A stretch of DNA of 38,082 nucleotides from an uncultured Anaeromyxobacter sp. (GCA_903855945.1 CAIOAK010000138.1:1-38082), one strand, 5' to 3'. Positions 9,801 to 27,640 are shown, counted from the stretch's first letter. Translations and numbers: made by a program. Notes: generated from the sequence alone by a model not told the origin.

Positions 9801-9891
9801 CCACGTGGCGGAACTGCGGCGCCGCATCCCCGCGCGCATCGAGGTGACGTCCACGGAGGCGGGGGCGGTGGCGACGGTCAGGCCGGCGTGA
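6868..9891 (+). CDS. sbcC: exonuclease SbcCD subunit C (Rad50/SMC-type ATPase)
   Basis: 1007 residues, the usual size. The N-terminal lobe has the P-loop GPTGSGKTSIFDGLTYALFG (about 35-54). Two very long Glu/Lys/Arg/Ala coiled coils flank a zinc hook, CPVCGSIDHPAP, at about residue 501, the exact centre. The C-terminal lobe has the signature LSGGESFLASLSLALGLSDV (about 910-930) and Walker B LFVDEGFGTLDE (about 943-954). This is a complete Rad50-type clamp that tethers and processes DNA ends with SbcD. It is cotranscribed with sbcD. Its 3' end overlaps the convergent addA by 14 nt with no terminator between them. Confidence 0.95.
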   Translation: MRPLQLELTAFGPYPKHQAIDFTALGGSDLFLIHGPTGSGKTSIFDGLTYALFGDLAGSRRPDRIRADRADKDLQTRVVFRFRMGDAVYSVERTPEWERPKKRGGGTTTDPARATLVREGEAAAVATGASDVTRAVVAILGMDVNQFTQVALLPQGEFKRLLCADSKEREELLKRLFATDRYVDIENLLIGRHRKLETSYEKLKTQRAEVLGPLTAEELVARLTGVRADVVAAASRAEELRQKDLVALDLLAKARELSGRFDERDDATKAEAGTRAAAELAKADRKTLDRARSAERVRDRLDRAQQAEAESALRVRNEEEAAEAEQGSKERHAKAEASARAAEAETPEMRRIERRVSELDRALPDLQRLSQLDALLADEKRKAADARGKQEKAGKSVEGAEAQIAALTVERTGAGPLAAEVPARQDVARSLDEALRAAREREKLRGEMSAQAKAQEEAIRTAKNSREAADLALKAAKKVHALREERLAAWLARTALNEGEACPVCGSIDHPAPAHADGHIPDEQEVATAQARGETLGRSAGEAESNLSLAKGRLDDLTRRLAEATTQEARPVGELHAAHTAATKALAEAKAAAERLATLDEQLGKARAALEAARKAHGETALAVTAAQEATVKTEASRAEIQQRLTAIGAGAEAADEIRKLRADLQSREKRARDARDEQQAAVAAAAQATTRLTLAVKAREEAARSLVEARASADAACTEEGFSGIAACREALLPVAQQGALDTSIQQRISAHLAEKKRLERVEAELSNLARPDVAALEAARAEAEKAARAADGEWVSLGAEENRLSGLVSRIAQLQGQSDQVTEELAVVGKVAELVRGHNPKGMSLHRFVLAARLEEVAEAASERLVLMTNGRFRLRHDTSLARKNAAAGLSLVVEDTHTGTLDRPVGALSGGESFLASLSLALGLSDVVLRHSGGRRLDALFVDEGFGTLDEATLDVAIQALETLPQAGRLVGVISHVAELRRRIPARIEVTSTEAGAVATVRPA

Positions 9892-12800
9892 GGACGGGGG
9901 TCGCCGTGTCCTGGGCGGCCACGTCGTCCTCGACCTCCGCCATCTCCCCGCGGATCGGCAGATGGACGAACGCGGCCCGGAGCGGCTTCTTCAGCGCGGT
10001 GGCGAGCACCCTGGCGTACCACCCCAGCTGCGGCGCGTACTCCTCCAGGAGCTTGCGGTCCCGCTCCTTCTCGGTGCCCGGGAAGGACTTGTGGTCCACC
10101 AGGACGAACCCGTCGGGAAGCTCGAGGAAGAGGTCCACCTCGCCGACGAGGAGGCGCGGCGCGGCACCCTCCAGGCGCGCGCGGACCGGCCACTCCCGGT
10201 ACCAGGTTGCTCCGGGGTAGCGGGCGTCGAGCCAGGACCGGAGCGCATCGGAGGCGGAGAGGAGCGTCTCCGGGGCCACGGCCCCCACGACCCCGAACGC
10301 CTTCAGGATGCGGGTCGCCATGAGCTTGCGAGCCTCGGCCGGTCCCGGCCGGTCGGCGGCCAAAAACCCGTGGATCGCGTCGCCGACCTGCCCGGCCTGC
10401 TCGGGCTTCGCGTCGAGCGGCTTGCGGCCGCCCAGTCGCGCGACGTTCACTATACGTGAAGTAAGCGCCAGGGGCTCCACGGAGGGGTTGAGCCGCTCGG
10501 CGGGCCGCTCCAGGCGCGGGGCAGCCGCGTACCAGAGCGTGGAGGCGCGCGTGGGAGCGGTGGCCGCGGGGGGAAGCCCGGAGACCGCCCGGGCCCGGCA
10601 GGGCCACCTGGCCTTGCCCACGCCGATGGTGTGCATCCCGGCCGCGCTCTCGAAGGGCGCCTCCAGGAGCGTCGCGCCGTCGGGCCCGACGAGCAGGTCG
10701 AGCGTCGCGGTCGCGATGCCGCCCCGCTCGCTGTTGCGGGCGATGAGCACGAGCAGGTCGCGGGGTCGCGTGAAGCCGACGTAGAGGAGACGGAGCCGCT
10801 CCCGGCGGTCGGCGTCGGAGGCCCGCTGCGCCTCGGGGGTCAGGGCGGCCTTGTCGGCGAGCGCCAGCCCCTTCACCTTCTTGCCGTAGGGCCAGGGCCA
10901 CCACCGCACCCAGCGCCCGTCGAGCGGCCGGGTGAAGTCGAACGCCGGCGCCCCCTCCACGGCCACCTCGAACACCCCGCGCTCCCGCGCGAAGTCGAGG
11001 TGGGAGAGGACGACCACCGGCCACTCGAGCCCCTTCGCCTTGTGCCAGGTGCAGACGGTGACCGCGTCCTCGGAGGTGGGCGCAGCCTGCTTTCCCGCCT
11101 CGTCGTCCGCGCCCAGCGCCGCCAGGTGGGTCACGAGCCCCAGGACGGTGGCCGCGCTCTTCTGGGCGTCGCAGAGCTGCTCGTAGGCGAGCGCCTCGCC
11201 GCGGAGGGCCTCCAGGTTGGCGAGCCGCTGGCCAGGCTCGGACCAGGCGCGGACGAGGTCGGGGATGCCGGCCGTCCGCAGGGCCAGGTCGAGCGCCTGC
11301 GCCGGGCTGAGACGCTCGGCCGCGGGCACCGCCTTGCGCAGGGCGGCCACCCGCGAATCGTCCTCGAACGGGGGCGGCGCCGCGGGCCTCGGCTCGCCCT
11401 TCCCCTCGGCCTCCTCCGCGGCTGCACGCCAGCGGGTGACCTCGAGGAGCCGCCGCGAGAGCCAGCCGTCCGGATCTCCCGTGGCGGCCCCGCCGAGCCA
11501 GCAGACCTCGAGCGCGGCGACGCCGTCCCGCGGGTCGGCGAGGAGCGCCAGCGCGGCACGCGCCAGCACGCCTTCCGGGGTCAGGGTCACGCCGGCGAGC
11601 GACACCTTGGCCGGGATGCCGCGGGCGCGCAGCGCCTCGGCGATCTGCTGGCATCGCTTGTTGGACCTGGCGAGGATGGCGACGTCCCGCGGCGTCGCCG
11701 GGCGGAGCGGTTCCACCTCGCCGGTGCCCCGCTCGCGCACGAGGGGCGCCTTCTCGAGCAGCTCGGCCACGCCCGCTGCGAGCGCGTTCGCCTCGGTGGC
11801 CGGCACGTTCTTGCCGTTCCGCTCGGCCGACTCCTTCTCCCAGCGCCAGCACTCGAAGGACGGCTGGCCGGCGAGCTTGGCGGGGTCCTTCTTCTTCGCC
11901 TCGAGCCGGACCTGCTCCGGAGGGAATCCGTGAGGCGCGAGCGCCGCGCTGAAGAGGTCGGAGACCAGCCCGACCAGGTCCTTCCGGGAGCGCCACGACT
12001 CCCCGAGGATGTCTGGCGCACGTCCCCCGAGCGCCACGTTCGTGGCGGCGGTCATGAGCTCGGGGTCGGACCCCTGGAAGCCGAAGATGGCCTGCTTGCG
12101 ATCGCCCACCCAGATGGAGCGCTTCGCGAGCCGCGCCAGCTCCCCCACCACCGCGAGCTGAAGCGGGGAGGTGTCCTGGAACTCGTCCACCAGGACCAGG
12201 TCGAGCCGCGTCCTCAGCGCCTCCTGGACCGCGGGGCGCGCGAGCACGTCCCGCGCCTGGGCCAGCATGTCGCCGAAGTCCACGACCCCGGCCGCGCCCT
12301 TCTCCGCGACGAACACCGCCAGGGTTTCGCCCGCGAGTGCGAAGAGCTCCCGCTGCATGCCGAGCACGTCGTCGTGGAAGGTGGCGCAGGAGGTGTGCTC
12401 CTGGACGATCTCCACGAGCTCGCCGGACCACGTCAGGAGCTTCGCCATGTCCACCGAGTCGGCGAACTGGAACTGGGCCTTCCACGACGGCAGGAGCCCC
12501 CGGGCGAAGACCGAGGCGAGCCTCTTCCCGGCGGCGGCCCGGTTCTTCGCTGCGGCCACGGTTCCGTTGGCGAGCTCGTCCAGCTTGGGCTGGAGACGGG
12601 CGTGGGCCGCCTTCAGGCGGGCCAGGTAGGTGGGGCCGTCCACGGTGGGCTTGCCGAGCAGATTCCCGAGCCCGGCCCGGCTCGCTGCGGCCGAGACCTT
12701 CACGGCCGCCTCGTCCATGCCGTTCGCGCGGGCGGCATCGACGATCTGGAGGAGCTTCGCCTTCCAGTCCTCGAGATCGAGCCGTGCGGCGAGCTCGTTC

Positions 12801-13174
12801 AGCCGGGCCTCGCGCCCGGTCAGCACCGAGGAGAGGGCGACGTCGAAGAGCCGCTCCCGCTCGATCTCCGGAATGGGCTCCAGGTAGGGGGAGATCCCGG
12901 CCTCGAGGGAGAACTCGCGCAGGAGCCGCTGACACACGGAGTGAATGGTGCCGATGTACCCGTCCCGGACACGGGCGGCGAGATCGGGGCGCCCCTTCTC
13001 GAGCAGGCGGGCCCGGATGCGGCTCTCCAGCTCGCCGGCCGCCTTCACCGTGTAGGTGATGGCGACGACCCCTTCCGGGCGAGCCTCGCCCTCGAGGAGC
13101 GCCTTGGCGAGGTCGCCGGTGAGGCGGAAGGTCTTGCCCGTACCGGCGCTGGCGCTGACGACGTCGATCTTCAT
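9878..13174 (-). CDS. addA: AddA-type UvrD/RecB-like helicase-nuclease
   Basis: 1098 residues from ATG 13174. Superfamily 1A motifs: Walker A SASAGTGKTF (7-16), motif Ia AITYTVKAAGELESRI, Walker B VLVDEFQDTSP (about 325), motif III VGDRKQAIFGFQG, motif V CTWHKAKGLEWPVVVL and motif VI LYVGFTRPRDLLVL. A C-terminal RecB-type nuclease domain shows GEVDLFLELPDG, LVDHKSFPG (about 1026) and a final YAPQLGWYARVL helix, so the D-(D)HK nuclease centre is intact. With AddB it unwinds and resects double-strand breaks for RecA. The frame stays open upstream to 14695 but is shadow there. The start overlaps the addB stop (ATGA), fixing the choice. Confidence 0.9.
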   Translation of the reverse strand: MKIDVVSASAGTGKTFRLTGDLAKALLEGEARPEGVVAITYTVKAAGELESRIRARLLEKGRPDLAARVRDGYIGTIHSVCQRLLREFSLEAGISPYLEPIPEIERERLFDVALSSVLTGREARLNELAARLDLEDWKAKLLQIVDAARANGMDEAAVKVSAAASRAGLGNLLGKPTVDGPTYLARLKAAHARLQPKLDELANGTVAAAKNRAAAGKRLASVFARGLLPSWKAQFQFADSVDMAKLLTWSGELVEIVQEHTSCATFHDDVLGMQRELFALAGETLAVFVAEKGAAGVVDFGDMLAQARDVLARPAVQEALRTRLDLVLVDEFQDTSPLQLAVVGELARLAKRSIWVGDRKQAIFGFQGSDPELMTAATNVALGGRAPDILGESWRSRKDLVGLVSDLFSAALAPHGFPPEQVRLEAKKKDPAKLAGQPSFECWRWEKESAERNGKNVPATEANALAAGVAELLEKAPLVRERGTGEVEPLRPATPRDVAILARSNKRCQQIAEALRARGIPAKVSLAGVTLTPEGVLARAALALLADPRDGVAALEVCWLGGAATGDPDGWLSRRLLEVTRWRAAAEEAEGKGEPRPAAPPPFEDDSRVAALRKAVPAAERLSPAQALDLALRTAGIPDLVRAWSEPGQRLANLEALRGEALAYEQLCDAQKSAATVLGLVTHLAALGADDEAGKQAAPTSEDAVTVCTWHKAKGLEWPVVVLSHLDFARERGVFEVAVEGAPAFDFTRPLDGRWVRWWPWPYGKKVKGLALADKAALTPEAQRASDADRRERLRLLYVGFTRPRDLLVLIARNSERGGIATATLDLLVGPDGATLLEAPFESAAGMHTIGVGKARWPCRARAVSGLPPAATAPTRASTLWYAAAPRLERPAERLNPSVEPLALTSRIVNVARLGGRKPLDAKPEQAGQVGDAIHGFLAADRPGPAEARKLMATRILKAFGVVGAVAPETLLSASDALRSWLDARYPGATWYREWPVRARLEGAAPRLLVGEVDLFLELPDGFVLVDHKSFPGTEKERDRKLLEEYAPQLGWYARVLATALKKPLRAAFVHLPIRGEMAEVEDDVAAQDTATPVLTPA

Positions 13175-15921
13175 GGCGCCACCTCCTCGTCCTCGAACTC
13201 GGGTGGCACGCAGACGGCCTGGTAGTCGCAGAAGCGGCAGGGAGGCTCGCGCCGCGCCGGCGAATCGGCGTCGGGCGGAGCGCCCACCGCAGCCGTGACG
13301 GGCTCCTCCCAGGGCAGGTCCTCGTGGAGCACGGGCAACAGCCCCTTCTCGAGCACCTTCTTCCAGAAGCGGAACCCTTCCGCCGATCCCTCGAGCGTGG
13401 CCTGCGGCCCCGGCCCCTCGACCAAGGTGGCGCCCGGGAAGGCGAGCGGCTCGGTGGTGAGCATCTGCCCGTCCTCGAGGACGAAGAAGCCGGAGGGCGG
13501 GAGCTTCTGGCCGCTCTTCCCGAGCAGGGAGGCGTAGAGGGCCGTCTGGAGCGCGCGCCCCTGCTCGAGCTCCTTCTGCCGGTACTTCAGGCCGGAGAGC
13601 TTGAGATCGACGAGGGCCTCGCGCCCGCCCTTCTCGACGACCAGGTCCACGAACCCGTGCGCCGGCTGCCCGGCGAAGGAGCCGGTCACCTCGCGCTCGG
13701 CGTCCACCGGGTTCCAGCCGGTGGCCTTCAGGAACTCGACGAGGGCGGCGGCGGCATTCGCCACGAGTGAACGGGCCCGGTCGAGCTCGACCTCCCGGCC
13801 GCGCCGGACGAGCGGCGCCGCCTGCACGCCTACACGGTCGGTGAATGCCTGGGTGGCCCACGCCCTCGCGTCGGCGGCGGTCGCCGTCGCCACCGAGAGC
13901 TTCTCCGGTCCGCACAGCATGTCCTGCAGGATCCGGTGGGCGAACGTGCCGAGCAGTTGATTCCCCTCGGGGAGGGTCACGCCGGCGCCCCGGGACAGCC
14001 TGGCCTTGTACTGGAGTGCCCAGCGGAACGGGCAGCCCAGGTAGCTCTCGAGGGCGGAAGCGGAGAGGGCGGCGGTGAACGCGACCGTCTCCGGGGGCAC
14101 GGTCCAGGTCGCGCGCTGCGGCAGGAGCGACCTCGGAGCGACGGTGCGGGTGGCCGCGCTCCAGTGCGCCGGCGTCGTTCGACCACCCAGGACGCGGTCC
14201 GAGGCCACGGTACACGCGGAGAGCGAGTCGGCCGCGACCCGCGTGGAGATCTCGTCGAGCAGGGCGTGTGGAGCGATGGGCTCGGTTCCGGCGAGGCGCC
14301 ACCGGACCAGCACCAGCCGCTCCCGGGCCGCCAGCACGGGGCGGCGCCACCCCTCGGCCTCGACGTCGCGCCGCTCGCCCGGTGCGGGGAGGGTCACGCC
14401 GGCCTCGAGGAGCGCATCGCGTTCCGCGCCGGTCCACGGCTCGGGCGACGGGCCCGGGTCGGCGCCCAGGACGAAGCCCCACCAGACCACCTCTGCGCTC
14501 GGAGTGGTCACGGCGCCCGGCGACGGCGCCAGGGCGGGACGCCCCGACTCGCCCACGAAGGCGGCGAGGTCGGAGCCGCTGCCCACGGCCATCTCGTGGA
14601 GCTGCAGCAGGGCCTGCTCCGTCAGCTTCTCGCCGGGCGGACGGGCGATGAGGAGCTGTTCCAGTGTCCGTGCGACCGCGCCGGCATGGGCCCACAGGGC
14701 GGAGTCGTCGTCGGCACCTCCCTCGGGGTCGGCTTCCGATTCATCCAGCGCGCCCCGCACGCGCCCCCCGGTCCAGGTGGCCACGGCGGAGCAGAGGAGC
14801 GCCGCCTTGGCGGCCGGGATGCCCTCGACCGGGTCGAAGAGCTCGCCGCCGAACCAGGTCTCGATGCGCCCGAGCAGCTCGGGGTCGCCAGCCTCGGCGA
14901 CCGCCTCCTCCACGGCCTCCTGCCAGGCCGGACTCCGGATGCCCGGCATCTGGTCGAGTGCCTCGAGGAGGGTTCGCCGGGTTCGTCCCGGGAGCGGCGC
15001 GCCGGGAAGCAGAAGCAGCTCGGCGGCGCGGAAGGGATCCTGGGGCTTGAAGGCGAGGGCGAGGCGAAGTGGGAGCACCTGAAGGTGGGGCCGGAGGTGG
15101 GACGAGGACCGGAGGCCGACGGTGGGGAGCCCCTGCCGCGCCAGGGCGGCGTCGAGGGTGACGGGCTCGGCGGCCACCACGAAGGTGGCCTGGTCGAGGG
15201 GGCGCGTGCGGGCGAAGGAGGCGGCGAGCTCGGCCGCCTCGAGCGGCGTGTCGGCCTCCAGGAGGAGGAGGGAACCGTCGCCGGAGAGCTCCGCCCGCGG
15301 TGACGTGTGGTCGAGGAGCGCGCGCTGGAGGCGCCCCAGGTCGGTGGAGGGCTTGGCGATGGCCGTCGCAGCGGCGGGATCGGTCACCGTGGCTCCCGCG
15401 TCGGCGAGGGCGTTGAGGAGATTCCGGAAGAGGGGAGGGAAGGAGCGCCGGGAGGCGGTGAGGGTGATGGTCACGGGGAAGGGGAGCGTGCCCGCTTCCT
15501 TCAGCCCCGCGATGAGATCGGCCACGACGTCGGGGATGCCCGGCGGGAGCGGCAGAGCGACCTTCTCCAGCTCCGACAGGTCGCGCAGCCTGGCGCTGCC
15601 ACCGAGCGCCCTGCCGTCCCAGCCGGAGAGACGGAGGTCGTCCCGGAGCGAGAGCAGGTAGCGGGCCACGCCGAAGGGATCCTTCTCGCGGGAGGCCGAG
15701 TAGGAGCGCGACTTGTCGTCGTGCTGGTCGAGACGCTGCGTGAAGGAGGCGAGCCGCTCGGGGGCGCTGGCCGTCTCGCCCGGGATGCCCAGGATGCGAC
15801 CGATGCGCCGGACGAGGCCGAGCGGGCCGGCGGGCTCGAAGCCGGAGATCGCCTGGCCGGGGGCGAGGAGGTGGCGCCAGGTCGTGCCGCCGTCGGAGGG
15901 ACTCAGGAGGATCGAGAGCAT
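13171..15921 (-). CDS. addB: AddB-like PD-(D/E)XK nuclease/inactive helicase subunit
   Basis: 916 residues. The N-terminal region (LLSPSDGGTTWRHLLAPGQA) sits where a P-loop would be but lacks GxGKT, as expected for AddB-type subunits with degenerate helicase domains. The C-terminal third is a nuclease with an iron-sulphur cluster: the first Cys in SYLGCPFRWALQYKARL (about 629), then HGFVDLVVE, ALVDLKLSG (about 772, D-x-K), QTALYASLLG, and the cluster CRFCDYQAVC (about 890-900). All four Cys are present. It precedes addA with a 4-nt overlap. A GGACGGACGT motif lies 24 nt upstream of ATG 15921 and resembles half of the sbcD inverted repeat. No strong ribosome site is visible. Confidence 0.85.
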   Translation of the reverse strand: MLSILLSPSDGGTTWRHLLAPGQAISGFEPAGPLGLVRRIGRILGIPGETASAPERLASFTQRLDQHDDKSRSYSASREKDPFGVARYLLSLRDDLRLSGWDGRALGGSARLRDLSELEKVALPLPPGIPDVVADLIAGLKEAGTLPFPVTITLTASRRSFPPLFRNLLNALADAGATVTDPAAATAIAKPSTDLGRLQRALLDHTSPRAELSGDGSLLLLEADTPLEAAELAASFARTRPLDQATFVVAAEPVTLDAALARQGLPTVGLRSSSHLRPHLQVLPLRLALAFKPQDPFRAAELLLLPGAPLPGRTRRTLLEALDQMPGIRSPAWQEAVEEAVAEAGDPELLGRIETWFGGELFDPVEGIPAAKAALLCSAVATWTGGRVRGALDESEADPEGGADDDSALWAHAGAVARTLEQLLIARPPGEKLTEQALLQLHEMAVGSGSDLAAFVGESGRPALAPSPGAVTTPSAEVVWWGFVLGADPGPSPEPWTGAERDALLEAGVTLPAPGERRDVEAEGWRRPVLAARERLVLVRWRLAGTEPIAPHALLDEISTRVAADSLSACTVASDRVLGGRTTPAHWSAATRTVAPRSLLPQRATWTVPPETVAFTAALSASALESYLGCPFRWALQYKARLSRGAGVTLPEGNQLLGTFAHRILQDMLCGPEKLSVATATAADARAWATQAFTDRVGVQAAPLVRRGREVELDRARSLVANAAAALVEFLKATGWNPVDAEREVTGSFAGQPAHGFVDLVVEKGGREALVDLKLSGLKYRQKELEQGRALQTALYASLLGKSGQKLPPSGFFVLEDGQMLTTEPLAFPGATLVEGPGPQATLEGSAEGFRFWKKVLEKGLLPVLHEDLPWEEPVTAAVGAPPDADSPARREPPCRFCDYQAVCVPPEFEDEEVAP

Positions 15922-16296: not shown

Positions 16297-17403
16297 GTGG
16301 CGCTCGCGGTGCTCGCCAGGGCGGAGCAGGCCTCGTCACTCATCGTCGCGGAAGCCGATAGCTCCGCCGGCCGGTTTGCTCGCGCCCTCGGTCTGTTCGA
16401 CGTGGCCGAGGGACGGGAAGTGGCCTGGCAGGGCGATGCGGGTCGCACCGTGCTGGTCCAGCGCTTTTCGAGCTTCGAGGGCATCGAGTCCACCGCGTCC
16501 AAGATTTCGAAGATGGTGCTGGGGGATCCGGAGACCGAGGACACGAGAAAGGCCATCTACTACGTGCTCGTGGAGTTGCTCAGGAACGTGGTCCAGCACA
16601 GTCGCGACCCCCTGGGGGGAGTGGTGGGCGCGCAGCTCATGAATGAGCGGCAGGGTTACAAGCGGCCCACCGTTCAGGTCACCGTCGGCGATGCGGGGAT
16701 CGGAGTCTTCGAAGCGCTCAAGCGGATGCACCCCACGCTTTCTGGCCCGCAGGAGGGGCTCGAGAAGGCGCTCTGGCCCCACTACTCGGGTACGTTCGAG
16801 GAAGGCCGAACCGGGGCGGGTCAGAATGCCGGGCTCGGTCTGTTCTTCATCGCAGAGATGGCGAAGCTCGTGGGAGGCAGGCTGCTTCTCGCATCGCGCG
16901 GTGCCGCCATTCAGTTCTGGGTAGACCCCGACAACTGGGAGAAGCACACCCTGGAGGTCCTGAGCCCGTCCGGCGTGGGCTTCCCGGGGACGCTCGTCAC
17001 CTTCGAACTGCCCCTCGACTCATTCCAGGACTACGAGGGGCTCATCGGTACCATCCAGGACCGAGCTCGAGAGCGGACGCCCAACCGTGTGCTGCATCGG
17101 TGGGTTCAATTCGTCGATGTTCTTCCCGCGGACGTTCATCGCATCAAGGTGACCGTTGGTGCGGAAGACACCGTCGCGGCGAAGGAACTATCGGATCGGA
17201 TCGTCGAGAAGGTGTTTCGCAAGATACCGATGGCACTGGACTTCAGCGGCCTGTCCATCTGCACGCAGAGCTACCTGCACGCGCTGCTCTTCGAGACCGT
17301 TCGCACGGCCTGGGCGCGCCAGACACCCTTGTACGTCGTGGGAGCCAAGCCCGGGGTGAAGAGCGGGGTCGAGCTCCTGGAGAACTACGCTCTCGGCGGA
17401 TGA
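16297..17403 (+). CDS. GHKL-type ATP-binding protein with C-terminal STAS-like (DUF4325) domain
   Basis: 368 residues. The centre has the Bergerat fold: N-box VELLRNVVQHS (about 93), G1 VGDAGIGVFEAL (about 128) and G2 NAGLGLFFIAEMAKLVGGR (about 183). The C-terminal 80 residues, with AAKELSDRIVEKVFRKIP, then MALDFSGLSICTQSYLHALL, resemble the STAS-like DUF4325 module. No dimerisation/phosphoacceptor histidine domain is evident, so it is not a classical sensor kinase; an anti-sigma-like or conformational ATPase switch is more likely (inference). The start used is GTG 16297. The frame is open back to 16240 without an ATG, so the N-terminus is uncertain. It stands alone between a nuclease fragment and a helicase pseudogene, so partner genes may have been lost. 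Confidence 0.75.
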   Translation: MALAVLARAEQASSLIVAEADSSAGRFARALGLFDVAEGREVAWQGDAGRTVLVQRFSSFEGIESTASKISKMVLGDPETEDTRKAIYYVLVELLRNVVQHSRDPLGGVVGAQLMNERQGYKRPTVQVTVGDAGIGVFEALKRMHPTLSGPQEGLEKALWPHYSGTFEEGRTGAGQNAGLGLFFIAEMAKLVGGRLLLASRGAAIQFWVDPDNWEKHTLEVLSPSGVGFPGTLVTFELPLDSFQDYEGLIGTIQDRARERTPNRVLHRWVQFVDVLPADVHRIKVTVGAEDTVAAKELSDRIVEKVFRKIPMALDFSGLSICTQSYLHALLFETVRTAWARQTPLYVVGAKPGVKSGVELLENYALGG

Positions 17404-17429: not shown

Positions 17430-18105
17430 TCAGGCTGAGGCCCCCACAAACCTCACGAACGCCATCGCCCGCGTCACCGCGATGTTCAACCTGATCTCCA
17501 CCCTGCCCAGCTCCCCCTCGGGCAGGTCCACCACGATGATGGCCGGGTCGTCGGCGCGGACCACCGCGTGCCTTCCCATCTGCGTACGCCCGTGGATCAC
17601 GCTCTCCGCCCCCTGACCGCGGAGCGACACGATCCCGATCTGGCCAGGTTCCAGCCCCGCCGACAGCAACCGGTCCACCTCCGCGCCCACCTTGTCCGGT
17701 CCCAGTCGCGGGTGCAGAGGTCGGCGGCCTTCGCGAAGACCTCACCCCAGGCCTCGACACCGGTGAGGACCGTACCCGACGGGCTCCCCGCGCCATCGGC
17801 GAGCCGCCTCGGCCGCGATGAGGGTCTTGCCGGAACCGGCGCCTCCCTGGACGAGCACGCGGTCGTTCTCGAGGAGGCCGTCGAGCACCTCGAGCTGCGT
17901 CGGCCAGGTAGGGCAGCTCCCCCTTGCCGACGACGAGGCCGGTGAGGTTGTCCTGGGAGGTCTGGACTCCCCACGTAGGTGTCGGGGAAGCAGACGGCGG
18001 CGCCGTAGGCGGGGGGCGAACAGTCGTCGTCGCGGAGGCGCAGCGAGTGCCAGGCGTGGAAGCCGGGGGGAGGCTGCGTCAACAAGGGTGTCGAAGTCGA
18101 TCTCC
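17430..18105 (-). pseudogene. NERD-domain/UvrD-like helicase, multiply deleted and frameshifted
   Basis: Pieces of one helicase appear in the right order but different phases. First comes a NERD-domain end (WHSLRLRDDD, then YGAAVCFPDTYVG, about 18065-17985). Next is an intact P-loop (LEVLDGLLENDRVLVQGGAG, then SGKTLIAAEAAR, about 17905-17815). Last is the C-terminus (VGAEVDRLLSAGLEPGQIGI, RHAVVRADDP, IIVVDLPEGELGRVEIRLNI, AVTRAMAFVRFVG) ending in TGA at 17430-17432. Full-length relatives are about 550-650 residues. Here the core between the P-loop and the C-terminal domain is missing, and a further stretch appears lost between RADDP and AIIVVDLPEG, where family members carry the 'F..FKGLE' motif. 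It abuts the 3' end of the DUF3427 helicase gene with no gap. Confidence 0.7.
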
Positions 18106-21100
18106 TCAAGCCGCCGGTCCCCATCGCCGCACCCATTCCGGCAGCAGCGGGGTCCCGAGCTTCCATTCGATGGTGATGGGCCGCTCGCCCGAGTGCGTTG
18201 CCGGGATCACCGGTCCCAGATAGCGAAATGCCTGCGTCAGGCCGCGCGCATCCCTCTTGGCGTCGCGAACGAAGAGAAGCGGGGTCGTCCCCTGGTCGCC
18301 TGGCCGGATGAGGCGAAGCCCCGCGGGCTCATCCGCTCGCGTGCTCGCCTTCGACTGCCACTGGAAGAGGGTCTCGCCCAGCGGGAAGTCCCGGTACTGA
18401 AGGTGCGCGTGCTTCTGGTCCGTCTTGTCGAGGGTGGTCAGGAGCAGGTCGTAGCGACCGTCGCACGCCTTCTCGACGCCCGTGTAGAAGCGGCGGTAGC
18501 GCCCGTCGGTGGCGGCCACCACGTGCAGTGCAGCCGCGAGCTCCACGTCCAGGTACCGTCCGTGCACCACGAGAGGGACGTTCGGATCCACGGTCTCCCG
18601 GCGATGGAGGGAATCGGCGCGCTTCTCCAGCACGGGGAGCAGCTGGCGCAACTCCTCGCGCAATGCCGCCTGCGAGCGCCATGCGGCGAGGCGTTCGTCG
18701 AACCGGTCCGCCTCGTACGGGCCGTAAAGAACCACGAACAGCATGGCTGCCAGGCGCCTCTCGATCTCGTTCAGCGCCTCCCGCAGGTCGAGCATCCCCT
18801 TCCACGCTTCCAGGCGCAGGGGGTCCGAGACGTGCAGCAGGTTCTGTACGTTCTCCAGCGCCGACCGCTCCTCCTCGTCGGTGGGCATCGCCCCGAGTCC
18901 GACGTCCGCGCGCACGGAGGTCCAGGACCGCTTCCCCCGGTAGAGGTCCATCAGATCCACGTCGGTTTCCTCGAGGAACTGGTCGAGGGTCCATCCGGCC
19001 TCCCGATGCGCGGAGAGGAGTGCCCGGATGCCCGTCACGTCCGACGGCATGGCGTGCGCGACTCGCTCGAGGATGTCCCTCTGGGCCCGTTCCTCGAACT
19101 GCAGGACACAGCCCGAAGGCAGGCGTCCCGAGCCCGTCTGGATGAACAGCCGCAGCTCGCGAGGCGTCTGGCCCAGGAGCTCCCGGAGATGCCGGTCGAA
19201 GCGGAAGCTCGGGTGCTGGCGTCCCGTGACGTCGAGGACGGTCAGGATGCTCTTGTCCCGCGCCCTCCGGAGTCCGCGGCCGAGCTGTTGCAGGAACACG
19301 GTCGTGCTCTCCGTCGGCCGGAACAGGAAGAGGGTGTTCACGTCCGGGATGTCCACGCCCTCGTTGAAGAGATCCACCACGCACAGGACCTGGATGCGTC
19401 GTGCCGTGAGGTCGTCCTTCGCCCGCCGTCGCTCCTCGTCGGGGGTGTCGGAGGTCAACGCACGAGCCGAAAGTCCAAGCTTGGTCAGTTCCTCGGCGAC
19501 GACCCGGGCGTGTGCCTTGTCCACGCAGAAGGCGAGCGCCCGAACCTCCTCCCGGCGGCCGACGTGCTCCGCGATGGCCCGCGAAACCGCCCGGACCCAG
19601 AAGTCACGGGCAGTGATGAGCCGCTGCGAGAGCTCGGAGTCGACGTAGCCGCCCGCGACCCATCGAGCATCCGACAGGTCCACTCCTTCCACGTCGAGCA
19701 CGAAGTACCGGAACGGGACGAGCACCTGCTGCTGGATGGCGTCCCACACGCGGAGGTTCCCGATGTACGGGCGGGGGAAATGGGCCTCGAAGACCCTGCC
19801 GTCGGCCCGCTCCGGCGTCGCCGTGAGACCGACGAGCTCCCGCGGCTTCAGCCGGGTCAGCAGTCGGTCGTACGTCGCGGCGGCGGCGTGGTGTACCTCG
19901 TCCACGATGACGTGATGGAAGTGGTCGGGCGCGAGCGCATCGGCATGGTCGAGGGACTGGACCGATGCGAAGACGTGCCGTCCGTCCGTGGGGCGCAGGC
20001 CATCCACCCAGAGCTCGCCGAAGCCCGGAAGTCCCAGGACCTCGCGGAAAACCCTCCGCGACTGCTCGAGGATCTCCCGTCGATGCGCGACGAACAGGAG
20101 GGAATCGACCTCTCCGCGATCGCGGAGCCGTTGATGGTCGAACGCCGCGACGAGCGTCTTGCCGGTGCCCGTGGCCGAGACGACGAGGTTCTTCCTGCGT
20201 CCCAGCGCACGGGCCTCGTCGAGCTCCCGGAGCAGGGGCTTCTGCCACTCCTTCGGCTCGAGTTGCAGCCCAAGGTAGGTCCCATCCCGATCCGGCTCCG
20301 TCAGGGCTCGCGCGAGGCGCTGCGACGCGGCGTCGGTTCCGTCGAACGGCTCGAATCGATCGGCGTCCACCCAGTAGCTCTCGAAGACGTTCGCCATCTC
20401 CTGGAGCAGGTCCGGCTGGTCCACCTGAGAGATCCGGACGTTCCACTCCAGCCCCTCCGTCTGGGCCGCGTGGGAGAGGTTCGAGGACCCGACGTAGCCC
20501 GTGGAATAGCCGTTCTCGCGATGGAAGAGCCACGCCTTGGCATGGAGCCGCGTGGTCCCTTCGTCGTAGGAGATGCGGACCTCGGCTCCCAGCTTCTGGA
20601 GCAGCTCGACGGCCTTCACCTCCGTGGCGCGCATGTACGTGGTCGTGAGCACCCGTATCGAGCGACCGCGATGGACGTGTCGCTCGATCTGGCGCCGAAA
20701 GGCGTCGAGACCGCTCAGCTTGATGAACGAGAGAAGGAGGTCGACCCGGTCGGCACTCTCGAACTCGCTTGCCAGATGGACAAGTACGCTCTCGCCGTGG
20801 GCGTTGGTGACCAGGCTGGAGGAGAGGAGGGAGCCGCGAGGGGGAGCCGACCTGCCGACGGGAAGGCCGGGCGTGATGGCCGTGATGCCACGCAGGATGC
20901 GGTCGCGGAGCTCGGTCTCGCCAGCCCGAAATCCCTCCAGATCCCGGAGGACTGTGAGCATCGCCTTGGCGGTGGCGATCTTCCGAACGGCGCTCGCTTC
21001 CGACCCGATGGCGATGCGAGCCGCGTCCCGGACCAGGGTGACGAGCTGTTCATCCACATCCGAGTCCCTGGCGACGTCCTGCAGTTCGAATTCGTGGGTG

Positions 21101-21213
21101 CGGGCGAGTTCGAGCAGGCGGCGCTCCAGCGCCTCCGAGACGATCTCGTCGTACACGCCGGGGCGGAGGGAGGCCTGGGTTCGACGCCAGATTCGAACGC
21201 GCCTGCAGTACAC
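18106..21213 (-). CDS. PLD-phosphodiesterase/SF2 helicase/DUF3427 protein
   Basis: 1035 residues in four parts: an N-terminal helical region; a PLD-type nuclease (about 140-290) with the HKD motif TTRLHAKAWLFH followed by TGYVGSSNLSHA; an SF2 helicase with Walker A VSATGTGKTLVAAFDHQRL (about 347), DEVHH (about 439), SAT-equivalent VGLTATPERADGR and motif VI QQLGRGLRRA (about 643); and a C-terminal third that fits DUF3427 (LQYRDFPLGETLFQWQSKA, then TTPLLFVRDAK). Proteins of this build are widespread and thought to act in DNA defence or repair; the mechanism is not established to my knowledge. GTG 21213 is used as start; GTG 21156 (VYDEIVSEALERRL) aligns better with relatives. Only 56 nt separate it from the divergent PLD-HIT-HNH operon, suggesting a shared promoter region. 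Confidence 0.85.
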   Translation of the reverse strand: MYCRRVRIWRRTQASLRPGVYDEIVSEALERRLLELARTHEFELQDVARDSDVDEQLVTLVRDAARIAIGSEASAVRKIATAKAMLTVLRDLEGFRAGETELRDRILRGITAITPGLPVGRSAPPRGSLLSSSLVTNAHGESVLVHLASEFESADRVDLLLSFIKLSGLDAFRRQIERHVHRGRSIRVLTTTYMRATEVKAVELLQKLGAEVRISYDEGTTRLHAKAWLFHRENGYSTGYVGSSNLSHAAQTEGLEWNVRISQVDQPDLLQEMANVFESYWVDADRFEPFDGTDAASQRLARALTEPDRDGTYLGLQLEPKEWQKPLLRELDEARALGRRKNLVVSATGTGKTLVAAFDHQRLRDRGEVDSLLFVAHRREILEQSRRVFREVLGLPGFGELWVDGLRPTDGRHVFASVQSLDHADALAPDHFHHVIVDEVHHAAAATYDRLLTRLKPRELVGLTATPERADGRVFEAHFPRPYIGNLRVWDAIQQQVLVPFRYFVLDVEGVDLSDARWVAGGYVDSELSQRLITARDFWVRAVSRAIAEHVGRREEVRALAFCVDKAHARVVAEELTKLGLSARALTSDTPDEERRRAKDDLTARRIQVLCVVDLFNEGVDIPDVNTLFLFRPTESTTVFLQQLGRGLRRARDKSILTVLDVTGRQHPSFRFDRHLRELLGQTPRELRLFIQTGSGRLPSGCVLQFEERAQRDILERVAHAMPSDVTGIRALLSAHREAGWTLDQFLEETDVDLMDLYRGKRSWTSVRADVGLGAMPTDEEERSALENVQNLLHVSDPLRLEAWKGMLDLREALNEIERRLAAMLFVVLYGPYEADRFDERLAAWRSQAALREELRQLLPVLEKRADSLHRRETVDPNVPLVVHGRYLDVELAAALHVVAATDGRYRRFYTGVEKACDGRYDLLLTTLDKTDQKHAHLQYRDFPLGETLFQWQSKASTRADEPAGLRLIRPGDQGTTPLLFVRDAKRDARGLTQAFRYLGPVIPATHSGERPITIEWKLGTPLLPEWVRRWGPAA

Positions 21214-21269
21214 GGTACCAGGCCGGCGGACGTGGCCGTGAGCAAAGTCGAGGCGAATTCAGACTCGTC

Positions 21270-22145
21270 GTGAAACGTGTACCATTCCGTGCCGTGAACG
21301 TCTCCACCGTCACCACCTCCGATCGGACCCTCCTCCCCGCCGTGCGCTCGACGCTCGACGGTTCGGACGAGGCCTTCCTCTGCGTGGCGTTCGTCCACTC
21401 CCGAGGTCTCCACCTGCTGGAGAAGGAGCTCGACGGCCTGAAGCGCAGGGACGTGCCCGCGCGCATGCTCGTGACCACCACCTTCCAGGAGGACGGCTCC
21501 GCCCTCTCGCTGGCGAGCAGCCTCGGCCTCCGGGTCCACGTCCTGAACCCCGGTGGGGGAAAGACCTTCCATCCGAAGATCTACCTGGGCAGGCGAGGGG
21601 ACGAGGTTCGAGCGGTCATCGGGTCCGCCAATCTCACCGGAGGTCTCGCGACCAATCTCGAGGCCGCAGTCTCGCTCGTCGGCACCCTCCGCGACGAGCC
21701 GATCGCTCGCGCCTGGAACTGGGCCTCGGAGCTCTGGTCGGACGAGCGGGTCGCGCCATGGATGGCGCGAGCGGGCGAGAAGGTGGAGGACCCGTTCGAG
21801 CCGAGCCTCCTCAAGGCGATGCGCGCCGAGGTGAAGCGGGACCCGATCTTCCGGACCCTCTCGCAAGGACGGCCGAATCGCGTCGTCGAGCTGACCCCGG
21901 TGGAGGCGTTCGTCGTGACCGAGCGGTCGCTGCAGAAGACGCGCGGCCCCGAGTCGATCCCCGCCTGGATGTTCAACCTGGCGTGGGATCGCCTGCGATC
22001 CTTCGGCACGCTCACGAACCGTGAACTCCTCGACGACATGCGCGTGCACCGCTCCAGCGCGGTCTGCGCCATGCTCGCACGGGTCCCCGGCGTGGAGAGG
22101 ATGCCGGGAAGGGAGATCGCGCTGCGATGGGATCGACAGCCATGA
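21270..22145 (+). CDS. phospholipase D-like (HKD) nuclease
   Basis: 291 residues with a single PLD half: an early strand-helix unit (DEAFLCVAFVHSRGLHLLEK), then THP-type motif FHPKIYLGRRGDEVRAVIGS followed by ANLTGG (about 100-123). His-Lys and the GSANLT strand are intact; a single HKD usually means the active site forms in a dimer. The C-terminal 120 residues are unassigned. Start codon GTG 21270 is used; GTG 21294 (VNVSTVTTSDRTLL) is equally possible and neither has a clear ribosome site. Its stop overlaps the HIT gene start (ATGA, 22142-22145). A second PLD domain is carried by the divergently encoded helicase, so the cluster has two PLD units. Confidence 0.8.
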   Translation: MKRVPFRAVNVSTVTTSDRTLLPAVRSTLDGSDEAFLCVAFVHSRGLHLLEKELDGLKRRDVPARMLVTTTFQEDGSALSLASSLGLRVHVLNPGGGKTFHPKIYLGRRGDEVRAVIGSANLTGGLATNLEAAVSLVGTLRDEPIARAWNWASELWSDERVAPWMARAGEKVEDPFEPSLLKAMRAEVKRDPIFRTLSQGRPNRVVELTPVEAFVVTERSLQKTRGPESIPAWMFNLAWDRLRSFGTLTNRELLDDMRVHRSSAVCAMLARVPGVERMPGREIALRWDRQP

Positions 22146-22531
22146 CCGCCTGCCCCTTCTGCACCCGGATCGCCTCCGGCGCCTCCGTCCAGACCGAGGG
22201 CACCGCTGTCGCCTTCCCCGACGGCTTCCCGCTCAACCCCGGTCACACCCTCGTCGTCCCCCGCCGACATGTCAGCGACCTCTTCGATCTCGCTCCGGGT
22301 GAACAGGCCGACATCTGGCGCCTCGTCGCGGCCGTCCGGGAGCGCCTGCTGGCCGAACACCGACCCGACGGCTTCAACATCGGCCTCAACGTCGGGGCCG
22401 CCGGCGGCCAGACGATGGGACACGCACACGTCCACGTGATCCCGCGGTTCCAGGGGGACGTTCCCGATCCTCGGGGCGGCGTCCGCTGGGTCATCTCCGC
22501 CCGCGCTGCCTACTGGAAGGACCGGCCGTGA
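22142..22531 (+). CDS. HIT family hydrolase
   Basis: 129 residues from ATG 22142, chosen because it overlaps the PLD stop as ATGA; an in-frame ATG at 22127 would add five residues. The N-terminal zinc-type motif CPFCTRIASG, the core GFPLNPGHTLVVPRRHVSDL and the catalytic triad GHAHVHVIPRF (His-x-His-x-His, about 93-103) are intact. HIT proteins hydrolyse or transfer nucleoside monophosphates from dinucleoside polyphosphates, nucleotidyl-amines or adenylated substrates. Its place between two nucleases, overlapping both, means it is made with them in fixed ratio. A role in reversing or reading a nucleotide or adenylyl signal is inference. Confidence 0.9.
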   Translation: MTACPFCTRIASGASVQTEGTAVAFPDGFPLNPGHTLVVPRRHVSDLFDLAPGEQADIWRLVAAVRERLLAEHRPDGFNIGLNVGAAGGQTMGHAHVHVIPRFQGDVPDPRGGVRWVISARAAYWKDRP

Positions 22532-23706
22532 ACGGGGACCGCGACGCGCTCACACTCGCCGAGAAGGTGCTCGCCATCCTGGAACTGGGCAGCTTCTCCG
22601 CCACCTACAAGTACGCACTCTTCACGGCCATCCTCGACCTGTGCATGGAGAAGGGGCTCAAGGGGCTCAGCGATCCGACGGTCCTCACCACCACCGAGCT
22701 GGCGGAGAAGGTCATCGAGCTCTACTGGCCCCACGCCATGCCGTACGAGGGCAAGGTCGTCCTCCGGCAGGGCGGTGGCCGGGCGGGAAGCCAGGCCGAG
22801 ATCCTCCGAGCCATCGAAGGGTTTCGGTCCGATCCCAGGAACGCTTCCGGTGAGATCCTCCACCGCGCACGCACCGCCCACCCGGTAGCCTGGAAGCGGC
22901 TCGTGCACGAGGTGGAGTGGAAGCTCATCGAGATGCCCATTCCCCGCCTCCAGGTATCCGGAAGTGGCGAGGACCGGTTTCTCTATGAGTACAGCTGGAA
23001 TCAGGACATCAAGCGGAGCACCGTCCGGGAGCATCAGAAGGACGTCCGCGACAGGTTCGACAACCGGCTCACGCTTCAGCCGGGCGTCGCCGAGGGTCTC
23101 CAGGCGCTGAACGGCATCCTCCGCCCCCTTCTCCGTCGCGAGTGGGCAGGGATGGTCGCTGCCATGAACGGCCTCCCTGAATCCCGCCTCGAGGAGTTCC
23201 TCTTCGGGGCCTCGCGCATCTCGCTGGACGAGGTGCGCGGACCGCTCATCGAGATCCAGGGAAGCCAATGCCTCTATTGCCGCAAGGCTCTCCAGGGTGC
23301 GATCGACGTGGACCACTTCATCCCCTGGGCCCGCTACCCCGACAACGGCCTCGACAACCTGGTGGCCGCGCACCAGCGCTGCAACAACCCGAAGCGGGAC
23401 TTCCTCGCAGCGGCCGAGCACGTCGAGCGCTGGGCGCTGCGGAACGTCGAGCGGGCAGGGGATCTCAGGGATGTGGCCAGCCGGATCGCCTGGCAACGGG
23501 AGCCGGGACGGACGCGCGCCGTCGCCGTGGCGACCTACTCGCGACTCGGCGAGGGAGCGAAGGTGTGGAGCGCGGGGACGAGTCTCGTCGGCCTGGAGAA
23601 GGGCAGGGTAGACGCGGCGCTCTCCGCCTGGACCTGGCTACCCCTCACAACCCCACGCGCTTCTCCCCCGCATCCACCGCCTTCAGCCACTTCACGAGCC
23701 CCGTGA
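22528..23706 (+). CDS. HNH endonuclease
   Basis: 392 residues from GTG 22528 (GTGA overlap with the HIT stop). The N-terminal half (EKVLAILELGSFSATYKYAL, then ELAEKVIELYWPHAMPY) is helical and probably a binding domain. A middle section has FLYEYSWNQDIKRSTV. The HNH domain lies at about 248-292: CLYCRKAL, IDVDHFIPWARYPDNGLDNL, HQRCNNPKRDFL, giving two CxxC-like half-sites (CLYC and HQRC) and the D-H...N...H core. The last 20 codons overlap the convergent proline iminopeptidase gene by 62 nt and are low-complexity (Pro/Ser), so the true C-terminus may have been changed by a small indel. It is the third gene of the PLD-HIT-HNH operon. Confidence 0.85.
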   Translation: MNGDRDALTLAEKVLAILELGSFSATYKYALFTAILDLCMEKGLKGLSDPTVLTTTELAEKVIELYWPHAMPYEGKVVLRQGGGRAGSQAEILRAIEGFRSDPRNASGEILHRARTAHPVAWKRLVHEVEWKLIEMPIPRLQVSGSGEDRFLYEYSWNQDIKRSTVREHQKDVRDRFDNRLTLQPGVAEGLQALNGILRPLLRREWAGMVAAMNGLPESRLEEFLFGASRISLDEVRGPLIEIQGSQCLYCRKALQGAIDVDHFIPWARYPDNGLDNLVAAHQRCNNPKRDFLAAAEHVERWALRNVERAGDLRDVASRIAWQREPGRTRAVAVATYSRLGEGAKVWSAGTSLVGLEKGRVDAALSAWTWLPLTTPRASPPHPPPSATSRAP

Positions 23707-24651: not shown

Positions 24652-26196
24652 ATGGTTCCAGCCCGTCCACCACCACCCTCTCCCGTCCCGTTGTACCCGA
24701 TCGGGTACGCCAGGCTCATCTCGGAGTTCTCGCTGGAGGTGATGCCGCTCCACCGGGTGACCTACGTCGCTCCGTCCGCGCAGCGGAGGGAGCGGGTCGA
24801 GAGCGGTCGTGAGGTGGTCGTCCTCCCGGCATCGCGCCATCGGGGAGGGGACGGCCTCGTGGACCACCTCGAGTTCGCGCTCAAGCACGAGGGAGTGAAC
24901 CTCGAGGTGCTCGCCGCCCTCTTCCGCGGCGTCGATGAAGCCCGGATCGAGGGGGAACTCGGGGCGGCGGTGCGCGACCGCCCCACCGGCCGCTACACCC
25001 GGATCCTCTGGTTCCTCTACGAGTGGATCACGGGCCGCGTGCTCGCCGTGCCGGACGCGGCCACCGGAAACTACGTTCCCGTCCTGGACCCAGAGGCCTA
25101 CTTCGCCGCCAAGGGTCGAAAGAGCCGGCGCCATCACGTCCTCGACAACCTGCTCGGCACCCGCGACTACAGCCCGGTGGTCCGGAGGACCCCGGAGCTC
25201 CGGCGATTCCAGTCGATGGATCTCGCCGGGGAGGCCGCGAGCCTCGTCCGGCAATTCGACGAGGACGCCCTACGCCGGGCGGTCAGCTCCCTCTACACGA
25301 AGGAGACCCGGGCCTCGTTCGACATCGAGGGTGAGCATCCGTCCACGGGAAGGACGGAGCGCTTCGTCTCGCTTCTCCGGGCGTTGCCCGGCATGGCGAG
25401 CATCGACCGGGCGCGGCTGATCGACATCCAGAACCAGACCGTCGATCCGCGGTTCGCCGACCGGGACTACCGCCTCGAGCAGGTCTACGTCGGCGAGCCG
25501 ATCGACATGACCCGCCAGCAGATCCACTACGTGGCCCCGCGTCCCGAGGACGTGGCGCCGATGATGGAGGGATGGCGGGCCCTGCTCGAAGCGATGCGCG
25601 AATCGGGCATCGACCCCGTCGTGTCCGCGGCCGTGGCCTCCTTCGGGTTCGTATTCATCCACCCGTTCTCGGACGGCAACGGGCGGATCCACCGTGCCCT
25701 CGTGCACTACGTACTCTCCGTGAACGGGTTCTCCCCCCAGGGAGTGATCTTCCCCGTGTCCGCCGTGATGCTGGCGCGCCGGAACGAGTACGACGCCTGC
25801 CTCGAGTCCTTCTCCGTTCCGCTCCTGGAGCGTGTCGATTACGACGAGTCCGAGGACGGAACGATCGCCGTCCGGAACGACACGGCCGGGTTCTACCGCT
25901 ACTTCGATGCCACCCTCATGGCCGAGGCCCTGTACCGCTGGGTCGAGGAGACGGTCCGCAAGGAGTTCCGGCACGAGCTGGAGGTGGTCGTCGCGATGCG
26001 GGACGTCCGGGAGGGCCTGCGACGCATCGTGGACCTGCCGGACAGGCAGGCGAACCTCTTCATCCGGCTCGTCGCGCAGAACCGCGGCCAGCTGTCCGCG
26101 GCCAGGCGGCGAAAGCACTTCTCGGCCCTCACGGACGAGGAGGTCCGGAGGATGGAGCAGGTGGTCCGGGAGAGGCTTGCGGCTGTCGCGGGGTGA
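24652..26196 (+). CDS. class II Fic protein (AMP-transferase)
   Basis: 514 residues. N-terminal Fic_N-like region (YPIGYARLISEFSLEVMPLH, then LVDHLEFALKHEGVNLEVLA). The inhibitory helix motif (S/T)xxxE(G/N) is present as SFDIEG near residue 222, upstream of the Fic core, which makes it class II: self-inhibited from within. The catalytic loop HPFSDGNGRIHR (about 337-348) has every residue of HxFx(D/E)GNGRxxR. The target-binding flap lies before it. The C-terminal 130 residues end in a winged-helix-like KHFSALTDEEVRRMEQVV. Such proteins transfer AMP from ATP to protein targets. The start fits the family N-terminus although no ribosome site is seen. A TPR gene follows after 14 nt. Confidence 0.9.
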   Translation: MVPARPPPPSPVPLYPIGYARLISEFSLEVMPLHRVTYVAPSAQRRERVESGREVVVLPASRHRGGDGLVDHLEFALKHEGVNLEVLAALFRGVDEARIEGELGAAVRDRPTGRYTRILWFLYEWITGRVLAVPDAATGNYVPVLDPEAYFAAKGRKSRRHHVLDNLLGTRDYSPVVRRTPELRRFQSMDLAGEAASLVRQFDEDALRRAVSSLYTKETRASFDIEGEHPSTGRTERFVSLLRALPGMASIDRARLIDIQNQTVDPRFADRDYRLEQVYVGEPIDMTRQQIHYVAPRPEDVAPMMEGWRALLEAMRESGIDPVVSAAVASFGFVFIHPFSDGNGRIHRALVHYVLSVNGFSPQGVIFPVSAVMLARRNEYDACLESFSVPLLERVDYDESEDGTIAVRNDTAGFYRYFDATLMAEALYRWVEETVRKEFRHELEVVVAMRDVREGLRRIVDLPDRQANLFIRLVAQNRGQLSAARRRKHFSALTDEEVRRMEQVVRERLAAVAG

Positions 26197-27364: not shown

Positions 27365-27640
27365 TCACGCAACCTCGTACCACTCGCCGAGGCGCTTCTC
27401 CCCGCGGTCGAGCGTTCCCTGGGCGCGGCGCAGCGTCCGGTGGGAGTCGTCCTCGCTCTCCTCGATGACGCGCTCCAGCGAGCTGAACGGCGCGTACGCG
27501 TAGCCCGCGCGCAGGAGGAGCAAGGTCGTGAGAATGCGCGAGAGGCGGCCGTTCCCGTCCTGGAAGGGATGGATGGCGAGGAAACGGACAGTGAACACTC
27601 CGATGACGACCCCCAGGCTCTTCCCGTCCGGCCCGAACAC
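27365..27640 (-). pseudogene. truncated Fic protein
   Basis: An open frame of 91 codons contains VIGVFTVRFLAIHPFQDGNG followed by RLSRILTTLLLLRAGYAY and SLERVIEESEDD. The Fic loop HPFQDGNGRLSR is perfect, but everything before the preceding helix (inhibitory motif, flap) and the C-terminal winged helix are missing. The usual 'YY.AL..AQ.T' is altered to DDSHRTLRRAQGTL, and a stop follows soon after. It differs clearly from the full Fic at 24652 (LSR versus IHR, different helix), so it is not a recent duplicate. A small solo Fic core is conceivable but without the flap it should be inactive. Confidence 0.6.

What the first reader, a model, noticed from the sequence alone, without database searches (positions are those of the whole stretch)
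18106..23706. Divergent PLD-helicase-DUF3427 / PLD / HIT / HNH cluster: candidate undescribed defence system
A 1035-residue PLD-SF2 helicase-DUF3427 protein faces, across 56 nt, an operon of PLD nuclease, HIT hydrolase and HNH nuclease whose genes overlap by 4 nt each. Seen directly: intact HKD, Walker, HIT triad and HNH motifs in all four. Known: helicase plus nuclease sets of this kind are typical of defence islands. Inference: the helicase loads on foreign DNA, the two PLD units and HNH cut it, and HIT handles a nucleotide signal or adenylated intermediate. I know of no named system with this exact set.
Basis: partly seen in the sequence, partly recalled or inferred. Interest (0 to 1): 0.75.

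Follow-up and report, generated by a model that had tools for sequence, protein, structure and literature searches.

The report
Stacked restriction genes with portable HIT-HNH pair
This stretch of a soil-type bacterium's genome is a modular DNA-restriction (anti-virus) locus in which a known type of DNA-cutting motor protein sits beside a small, independently mobile pair of genes, a HIT enzyme and an HNH nuclease; that pair recurs across bacteria, and a different enzyme often takes the HIT gene's place.

Summary
The four genes are real and lie where stated. The 1035-aa protein is not an unknown. It is a relative of SauUSI, the type IV PLD-helicase-DUF3427 restriction enzyme (PDB 7clg, E 4e-66; PADLOC mREase_IV, 630 bits), and 35 aligned orthologues keep its catalytic residues.

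The four genes together are not a conserved system. I found the full set in only three species of one genus. It is built from parts that also occur apart: (a) the SauUSI-like enzyme, usually solo; (b) the PLD gene, normally paired with an HNH_2 nuclease gene that the window lacks; (c) the HIT-HNH pair.

The HNH gene is the interesting part. It has a Cas9/IscB-like HNH domain behind a confidently predicted N-terminal region with no match in the PDB. Among 67 other loci, its neighbour is a HIT gene (29), a SAM methyltransferase (23) or neither (15), never both. Partner type changed repeatedly on the tree. The pair occurs on plasmids and beside BREX, McrBC, type I R-M and SauUSI-like genes.

So this is a composite restriction locus carrying a possibly undescribed portable nuclease module. 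No function was tested experimentally.

The parts
18106..21213 (-). SauUSI-like PLD nuclease - SF2 helicase - DUF3427 protein (1035 aa), putative ATP-dependent modification-dependent restriction enzyme
   Evidence: Pfam, PADLOC mREase_IV 630 bits, PDB 7clg SauUSI 227 bits over residues 132-716, invariant catalytic residues in 35 orthologues
21214..21269 (.). 56-nt divergent intergenic region between helicase and PLD-HIT-HNH operon
   Evidence: sequence; in same-genus genome G027 an additional HNH_2 nuclease gene lies between the two
21270..22145 (+). Single-HxK PLD-family nuclease (291 aa) with own C-terminal region
   Evidence: PLDc_2 sub-threshold, similarity to the PLD region of mREase_IV/SauUSI; 13 of 195 Myxococcota genomes, 8 of them next to the HNH_2 gene
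22142..22531 (+). HIT-family nucleotide hydrolase/transferase (129 aa), histidine triad HAHVHV intact
   Evidence: Pfam HIT 1.5e-20; Ap4A phosphorylase/HIT structures; 4-nt overlap with both neighbours
22528..23706 (+). HNH nuclease (392 aa): helical N-terminal region (about 1-230) of no recognised family + Cas9/IscB-like HNH domain (about 234-295) + C-terminal helices
   Evidence: Pfam HNH_4/HNH; AlphaFold2 pLDDT 89, pTM 0.88; family profile hits only the HNH domains of Cas9 and others in PDB; no whole-fold match

Best explanation
The locus is a composite, modular restriction locus and not one dedicated machine. Module 1 is a SauUSI-like enzyme. By analogy with SauUSI it recognises modified DNA with its C-terminal domain, uses ATP to translocate, and cuts with dimeric PLD nuclease domains (inferred from homology). 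Module 2 is a small PLD nuclease that in relatives is paired with an HNH_2 nuclease and often with module 1. The window's lineage apparently lost the HNH_2 partner. Module 3 is a portable two-gene unit, HIT + HNH, that also travels alone; its family sits beside BREX, McrBC, type I R-M or SauUSI-like enzymes. Its HNH protein is most likely a DNA nuclease whose N-terminal region senses a ligand or DNA state. The HIT partner, replaceable by a SAM-dependent methyltransferase and in one locus by a Nudix hydrolase plus methyltransferase, most likely makes, removes or edits a small nucleotide or adenylate that governs or follows HNH cutting. Shown here: the anatomy, modularity, partner exchange and restriction-rich neighbourhoods. 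Inferred: every enzymatic activity and the control step. My confidence in the modular-restriction reading is about 0.72; in the specific HIT/HNH control step about 0.25.
For: SauUSI relationship; SauUSI mechanism from PMC7913695. Helicase usually lacks HIT/HNH neighbours among Myxococcota orthologues. PLD paired with HNH_2 gene in 8 of 13 genomes; helicase + HNH_2 + PLD together in L076, L134, L137, L138. HNH partner census, 29 HIT / 23 methyltransferase / 15 neither / 0 both in 67 loci. Partner changes on the tree (HIT at least 5, methyltransferase at least 4 forced by well-supported branches). HIT-HNH pair among insertion sequences on Aromatoleum plasmid 2 and on Polaromonas pPNAP03. Beside BREX. 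Beside McrC and type I R-M genes; beside an ATPase/McrC-like gene pair in Clostridia. Neighbours: 94 proteins match 176 PADLOC families, including type I R-M, mREase_IV, HEC-06 and HNH, against 63, mostly kinase and RtcR models, for 94 control proteins. SauUSI-like gene beside the HNH gene in distant lineages.
Against: The association with SauUSI-like genes (3 of 47 loci outside the genus in the main scan, with 0.02 expected at uniform gene density) is stronger than simple independence. Only a roughly 30-fold higher local density in defence islands brings it near chance, P about 0.03. In L064 the SauUSI-like gene, Nudix, HNH and methyltransferase genes are head-to-tail within 15 nt, and in L030 the HNH frame overlaps the helicase start, so some functional coupling is likely. 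No activity is demonstrated. DUF3427 is matched only in its C-terminal part.
Confidence: 0.72

Rival explanations
1. A dedicated four-component defence system: the helicase loads on foreign DNA, PLD units and HNH cut it, and HIT handles a nucleotide signal.
For: Tight spacing and overlaps; same four genes in three species of the genus; recurrent SauUSI-HNH proximity elsewhere.
Against: Full set confined to one genus; HIT-HNH without helicase in most loci; helicase without HIT/HNH in most orthologues; PLD normally partners a gene absent from the window.
Confidence: 0.12
2. HIT-HNH (and methyltransferase-HNH) is a toxin-antitoxin-like or abortive-infection pair: a small upstream enzyme restrains a self-damaging HNH nuclease, and the pair merely shares an island with the SauUSI-like gene.
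For: Small gene first, large nuclease second, 4-nt overlap; mobile on plasmids next to insertion sequences; partner is an enzyme, as in enzymatic antitoxins (inference).
Against: 15 of 67 loci have neither partner nearby; partner identity is not fixed (HIT or methyltransferase), unusual for an antitoxin; neighbourhoods are restriction-rich.
Confidence: 0.22
3. HIT/Nudix/methyltransferase partners are DNA-end or nucleotide-pool clean-up enzymes (aprataxin-like removal of 5'-AMP, MutT-like sanitation) that protect the host after HNH or SauUSI cutting.
For: SauUSI homologues in Streptococcus are reported beside MutT homologues (PMC7641849); the Nudix in L064 is PADLOC candidate PDC-S07 and MutT-like; HIT proteins include Ap4A and AMP-removing enzymes (and general knowledge).
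Against: A TehB-like SAM methyltransferase as the exchange partner does not fit simple clean-up; the HIT protein resembles Ap4A phosphorylase/HIT proteins rather than long aprataxins.
Confidence: 0.15
4. Pure bystander clustering: unrelated defence genes piled into a hotspot by the addAB locus with no functional link.
For: Different cassettes near addAB in G017 and G025; adjacent Fic PDC-S24.
Against: Repeated proximity to SauUSI-like genes in distant phyla, with operon-like packing in L064 and L030.
Confidence: 0.3

Closest known systems
[quoted passage not shown]
   Same: Single-chain PLD nuclease, SF2 ATPase with Walker A, D-E-x-H box and motif VI, DUF3427/SRA C-terminus
   Different: Longer N-terminus; acidic PLD residue replaced by His; DUF3427 similarity partial; specificity unknown; divergent nuclease operon alongside
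PADLOC candidate PDC-S07 (Nudix) and the SauUSI-MutT neighbourhoods of PMC7641849
   Same: Small nucleotide hydrolase beside a SauUSI-like gene
   Different: HIT instead of Nudix in the window, and coupled to an HNH gene; Nudix seen with this HNH family only in L064
Thoeris type II ThsC (HIT)
   Same: HIT-family protein in a defence locus (37.5 bits)
   Different: No ThsA/ThsB partner; the partner is an HNH nuclease
Cas9 / IscB HNH domains; Septu PtuB HNH
   Same: HNH domain similarity, confined to about 60-90 residues
   Different: No RuvC or RNA-guide parts, no PtuA ATPase; own N-terminal helical region
DISARM DrmC and other PLD nucleases
   Same: Single-HxK PLD-like nuclease
   Different: 18 bits against a 133-bit cut-off; no DISARM core genes
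VcaM4I (EVE-HNH) and PT-DNA restriction HNH enzymes
   Same: HNH region of the HNH_2 partner gene found in relatives
   Different: That gene is absent from the window; its N-terminal domain had no Pfam match

Membership tests
SauUSI-like type IV restriction enzyme | N-terminal PLD nuclease with HxK and GSxN | tested here: met
   PLDc_2 2.4e-9; (invariant in 35 orthologues; acidic residue is His)
SauUSI-like type IV restriction enzyme | SF2 helicase-like ATPase motifs | tested here: met
SauUSI-like type IV restriction enzyme | C-terminal DUF3427/SRA target-recognition domain | tested here: inconclusive
   DUF3427 2.8e-10 but only profile positions 165-271 of 280; the SRA fold itself was not modelled
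SauUSI-like type IV restriction enzyme | Cleaves only modified DNA (m5C/hm5C) with ATP | not testable with these tools
   needs biochemistry
Dedicated four-gene helicase/PLD/HIT/HNH system | The four genes co-occur across genomes beyond one genus | tested here: not met
HIT/methyltransferase-HNH two-gene unit (defined here) | HNH gene beside a HIT or SAM-methyltransferase gene, not both | tested here: met
   52 of 67 loci have one, 0 both; window has HIT with 4-nt overlap
Thoeris type II | ThsC HIT together with ThsA and ThsB | tested here: not met
   ThsC-like HIT 37.5 bits; no TIR/SIR2 gene among the window genes scanned
DISARM | DrmC above cut-off plus DrmA/DrmB/methylase | tested here: not met
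   DrmC 18.4 vs 133 bits; core genes absent among scanned neighbours
Septu | PtuA ATPase + PtuB HNH | tested here: not met
   PtuB 24 bits, HNH region only; no PtuA among scanned neighbours
Cas9/IscB RNA-guided nuclease | RuvC domain with HNH | tested here: not met
   only HNH matched

The most novel reading that the evidence does not exclude
The HNH family found here (invariant YK and VDHFIPWA motifs, unmatched N-terminal region), with its exchangeable HIT or SAM-methyltransferase partner, is an undescribed mobile anti-phage module that attaches to different restriction engines (SauUSI-like, BREX, McrBC, type I). Its partner enzymes share one task: processing a nucleotide or adenylate ligand that controls the HNH nuclease.
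Probability: 0.35. Interest if true: 0.65.

Novelty: new variant of a known kind. Interest (0 to 1): 0.45.

Why it matters
The SauUSI-like part is a new member of a known kind. The HIT/methyltransferase-HNH pair is a small, portable, testable unit that I did not find described in PADLOC 2023 or in the open-access papers searched. If two unrelated enzymes fill the same slot beside one nuclease, whatever chemistry they share would point to the nuclease's trigger, a question that can be answered with two-gene constructs.

Tried and rejected
Single four-gene system: rejected on distribution. DISARM, Septu, Thoeris II and Cas9/IscB membership: rejected, defining parts absent. Phage origin of the HNH family: no match in 50,697 phage records and only three full-length relatives in 2.9 million viral contigs, so not a common phage gene family. 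A structure for the small PLD protein from two sequences failed (pLDDT 36) and was not used. Foldseek matches of the HNH model to whole Cas9 (TM about 0.2) are not meaningful beyond the HNH domain. Literature searches for HIT-HNH or SauUSI with HIT gave no prior description; Thoeris ThsC (PMC8565338) and SauUSI-MutT (PMC7641849) were the nearest. The N-terminus of the extra HNH_2 gene in relatives looked PUA-like to me from memory only; no Pfam match supports that.

Full report
OBSERVATION. The window holds four open genes as described: 18106-21213(-), 21270-22145(+), 22142-22531(+) and 22528-23706(+). The first two diverge across 56 nt; the last three overlap by 4 nt each. Pfam identifies ResIII, Helicase_C, DUF3427 and PLDc_2 in the first, HIT in the third and HNH in the fourth. 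The second is a weak PLDc_2 match with a clear HPK...GSAN motif. The genome is a 4.07-Mb assembly in 213 contigs; a same-genus relative is labelled Anaeromyxobacter sp. (L033).

THE HELICASE IS A SauUSI RELATIVE. It matches the SauUSI crystal-structure sequence (7clg) with E 3.9e-66 across PLD and ATPase domains and PADLOC mREase_IV with 630 bits. SauUSI is a dimeric, ATP-driven, translocating enzyme with a PLD nuclease and an SRA-fold target-recognition domain that cuts 5mC/5hmC DNA (PMC7913695; PMC3874153). I infer the same working principle; the specificity is unknown, and only part of the DUF3427 profile is matched.

THE SET OF FOUR IS NOT CONSERVED. Of 195 Myxococcota genomes, 69 have a relative of the helicase. 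In about 30 neighbourhoods of its fuller-length orthologues fetched from other genera, the HIT/HNH genes are absent, L030 (HNH only) being the exception. All four genes together were found in the window, G028/L033 and G027/L076, all one genus. G027 carries a fifth gene between helicase and PLD, an HNH_2 nuclease. That HNH_2 gene is the usual partner of the small PLD: 8 of 13 genomes with the PLD have it adjacent (L076, L078, L134, L137, L138, L160-L162), four of them with the helicase. The window and G028 therefore look like derivatives that lost it (inference).

THE HIT-HNH PAIR. Relatives of the HNH protein occur in Myxococcota, Acidobacteriota, Planctomycetota, Gemmatimonadota, Pseudomonadota, Actinomycetota and Bacillota. 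They share 16 invariant columns, among them YK (27-28) and VDHFIPWA (261-268). In 67 loci other than the window, the gene within about 1.6 kb is a HIT gene in 29, a TehB-like SAM methyltransferase in 23 and neither in 15; none has both, and one (L064) has a methyltransferase plus a MutT-like Nudix. Partner type is clustered on the tree but changed several times: at least five changes for HIT and four for methyltransferase are forced by well-supported branches. Many of these loci are related, so the zero for 'both' should not be read as 67 independent trials. The HNH model is confident (pLDDT 89, pTM 0.88). Only its HNH domain has relatives in the PDB (Cas9 and others), and the N-terminal region has no recognised match.

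CONTEXT. HIT-HNH pairs sit on plasmids (Polaromonas pPNAP03; Aromatoleum plasmid 2, between insertion sequences). The methyltransferase version lies beside a WYL gene and BREX on an Acinetobacter plasmid, beside McrC and type I R-M genes on a Marinomonas plasmid, and beside an ATPase/McrC-like pair in Clostridia (L192; the McrC call is by sequence inspection, and PADLOC matched the ATPase only to generic restriction and PDC-S02 models). L194 has the HNH gene directly after pglZ-brxL. A scan of 94 neighbouring proteins matched 176 PADLOC families, led by restriction genes; 94 proteins from control segments matched 63, mostly kinase and RtcR models. The control segments were hand-picked positions, so this is a rough comparison, and models of one family are counted separately. 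SauUSI-like genes adjoin the HNH gene outside the genus in L030, L059, L064 and L193. Three of 47 loci in the main scan is far above 0.02 expected at uniform density, but with 30-fold denser islands P is about 0.03, so some coupling is likely and not proven.

MECHANISM. Most likely the SauUSI-like enzyme restricts modified invading DNA on its own, and the HIT-HNH pair is a separate nuclease module whose partner enzyme handles a nucleotide or adenylate linked to HNH control or to repair after cutting. The anatomy, modularity and partner exchange are shown; all activities are inferred. Rivals are a toxin-antitoxin-like pair, clean-up enzymes, and mere hotspot clustering. The rival confidences overlap because the modular reading leaves open whether the modules cooperate. 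The addAB locus beside the window's cluster carries other cassettes in G017 and G025, which favours a hotspot.

NOVELTY. The helicase is a new member of a known kind. The HIT/methyltransferase-HNH pair is not in PADLOC 2023 beyond weak HNH-domain hits, and I found no description in the papers searched. Subscription journals, most preprints and DefenseFinder were not available, so it may be described elsewhere. Overall: a new variant of a known kind, with one component that deserves a two-gene test.

Noticed in passing
window 24652-26196 (+): Fic-family gene matching PADLOC candidate defence family PDC-S24 with 571 bits, right after the cluster.
   Followed up: no
window 17430-17900 (-): Apparent relic of a UvrD/NERD-type helicase: a Walker A fragment (GGAGSGKT, similar to the NERD-UvrD helicase of L062) and a 'LNIAVTRA' C-terminal fragment, interrupted by a stop.
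   Followed up: partly
window 6868-15921: SbcC-like and AddA/AddB-like repair genes; the addAB locus carries other defence cassettes in G025 (L077) and G017 (L118), suggesting an integration hotspot.
   Followed up: partly
window 27365-27640 (-): Truncated second Fic domain fragment.
   Followed up: no
G000 contig C40:98-289 (L002): Fragment 67% identical to the C-terminal part of the HNH protein at a contig end: a second, incomplete copy in the same genome.
   Followed up: no
L030:7962-9158: HNH gene in the Polyangiaceae MAG is interrupted by an in-frame stop codon although its reading frame overlaps the SauUSI-like gene start.
   Followed up: partly
L013/L084:1-1236: HNH-family protein with methyltransferase-like sequence in the same open frame at its N-terminus, possibly a methyltransferase-HNH fusion; judged by eye only.
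   Followed up: no
L194:7923-8858: Gene resembling an ADP-ribosylglycohydrolase (by sequence inspection only) directly after pglZ-brxL-HNH, possibly another small-molecule enzyme next to this HNH family.
   Followed up: no
window 16297-17403 (+): HATPase-like protein (weak HATPase_c match) beside the cluster.
   Followed up: no
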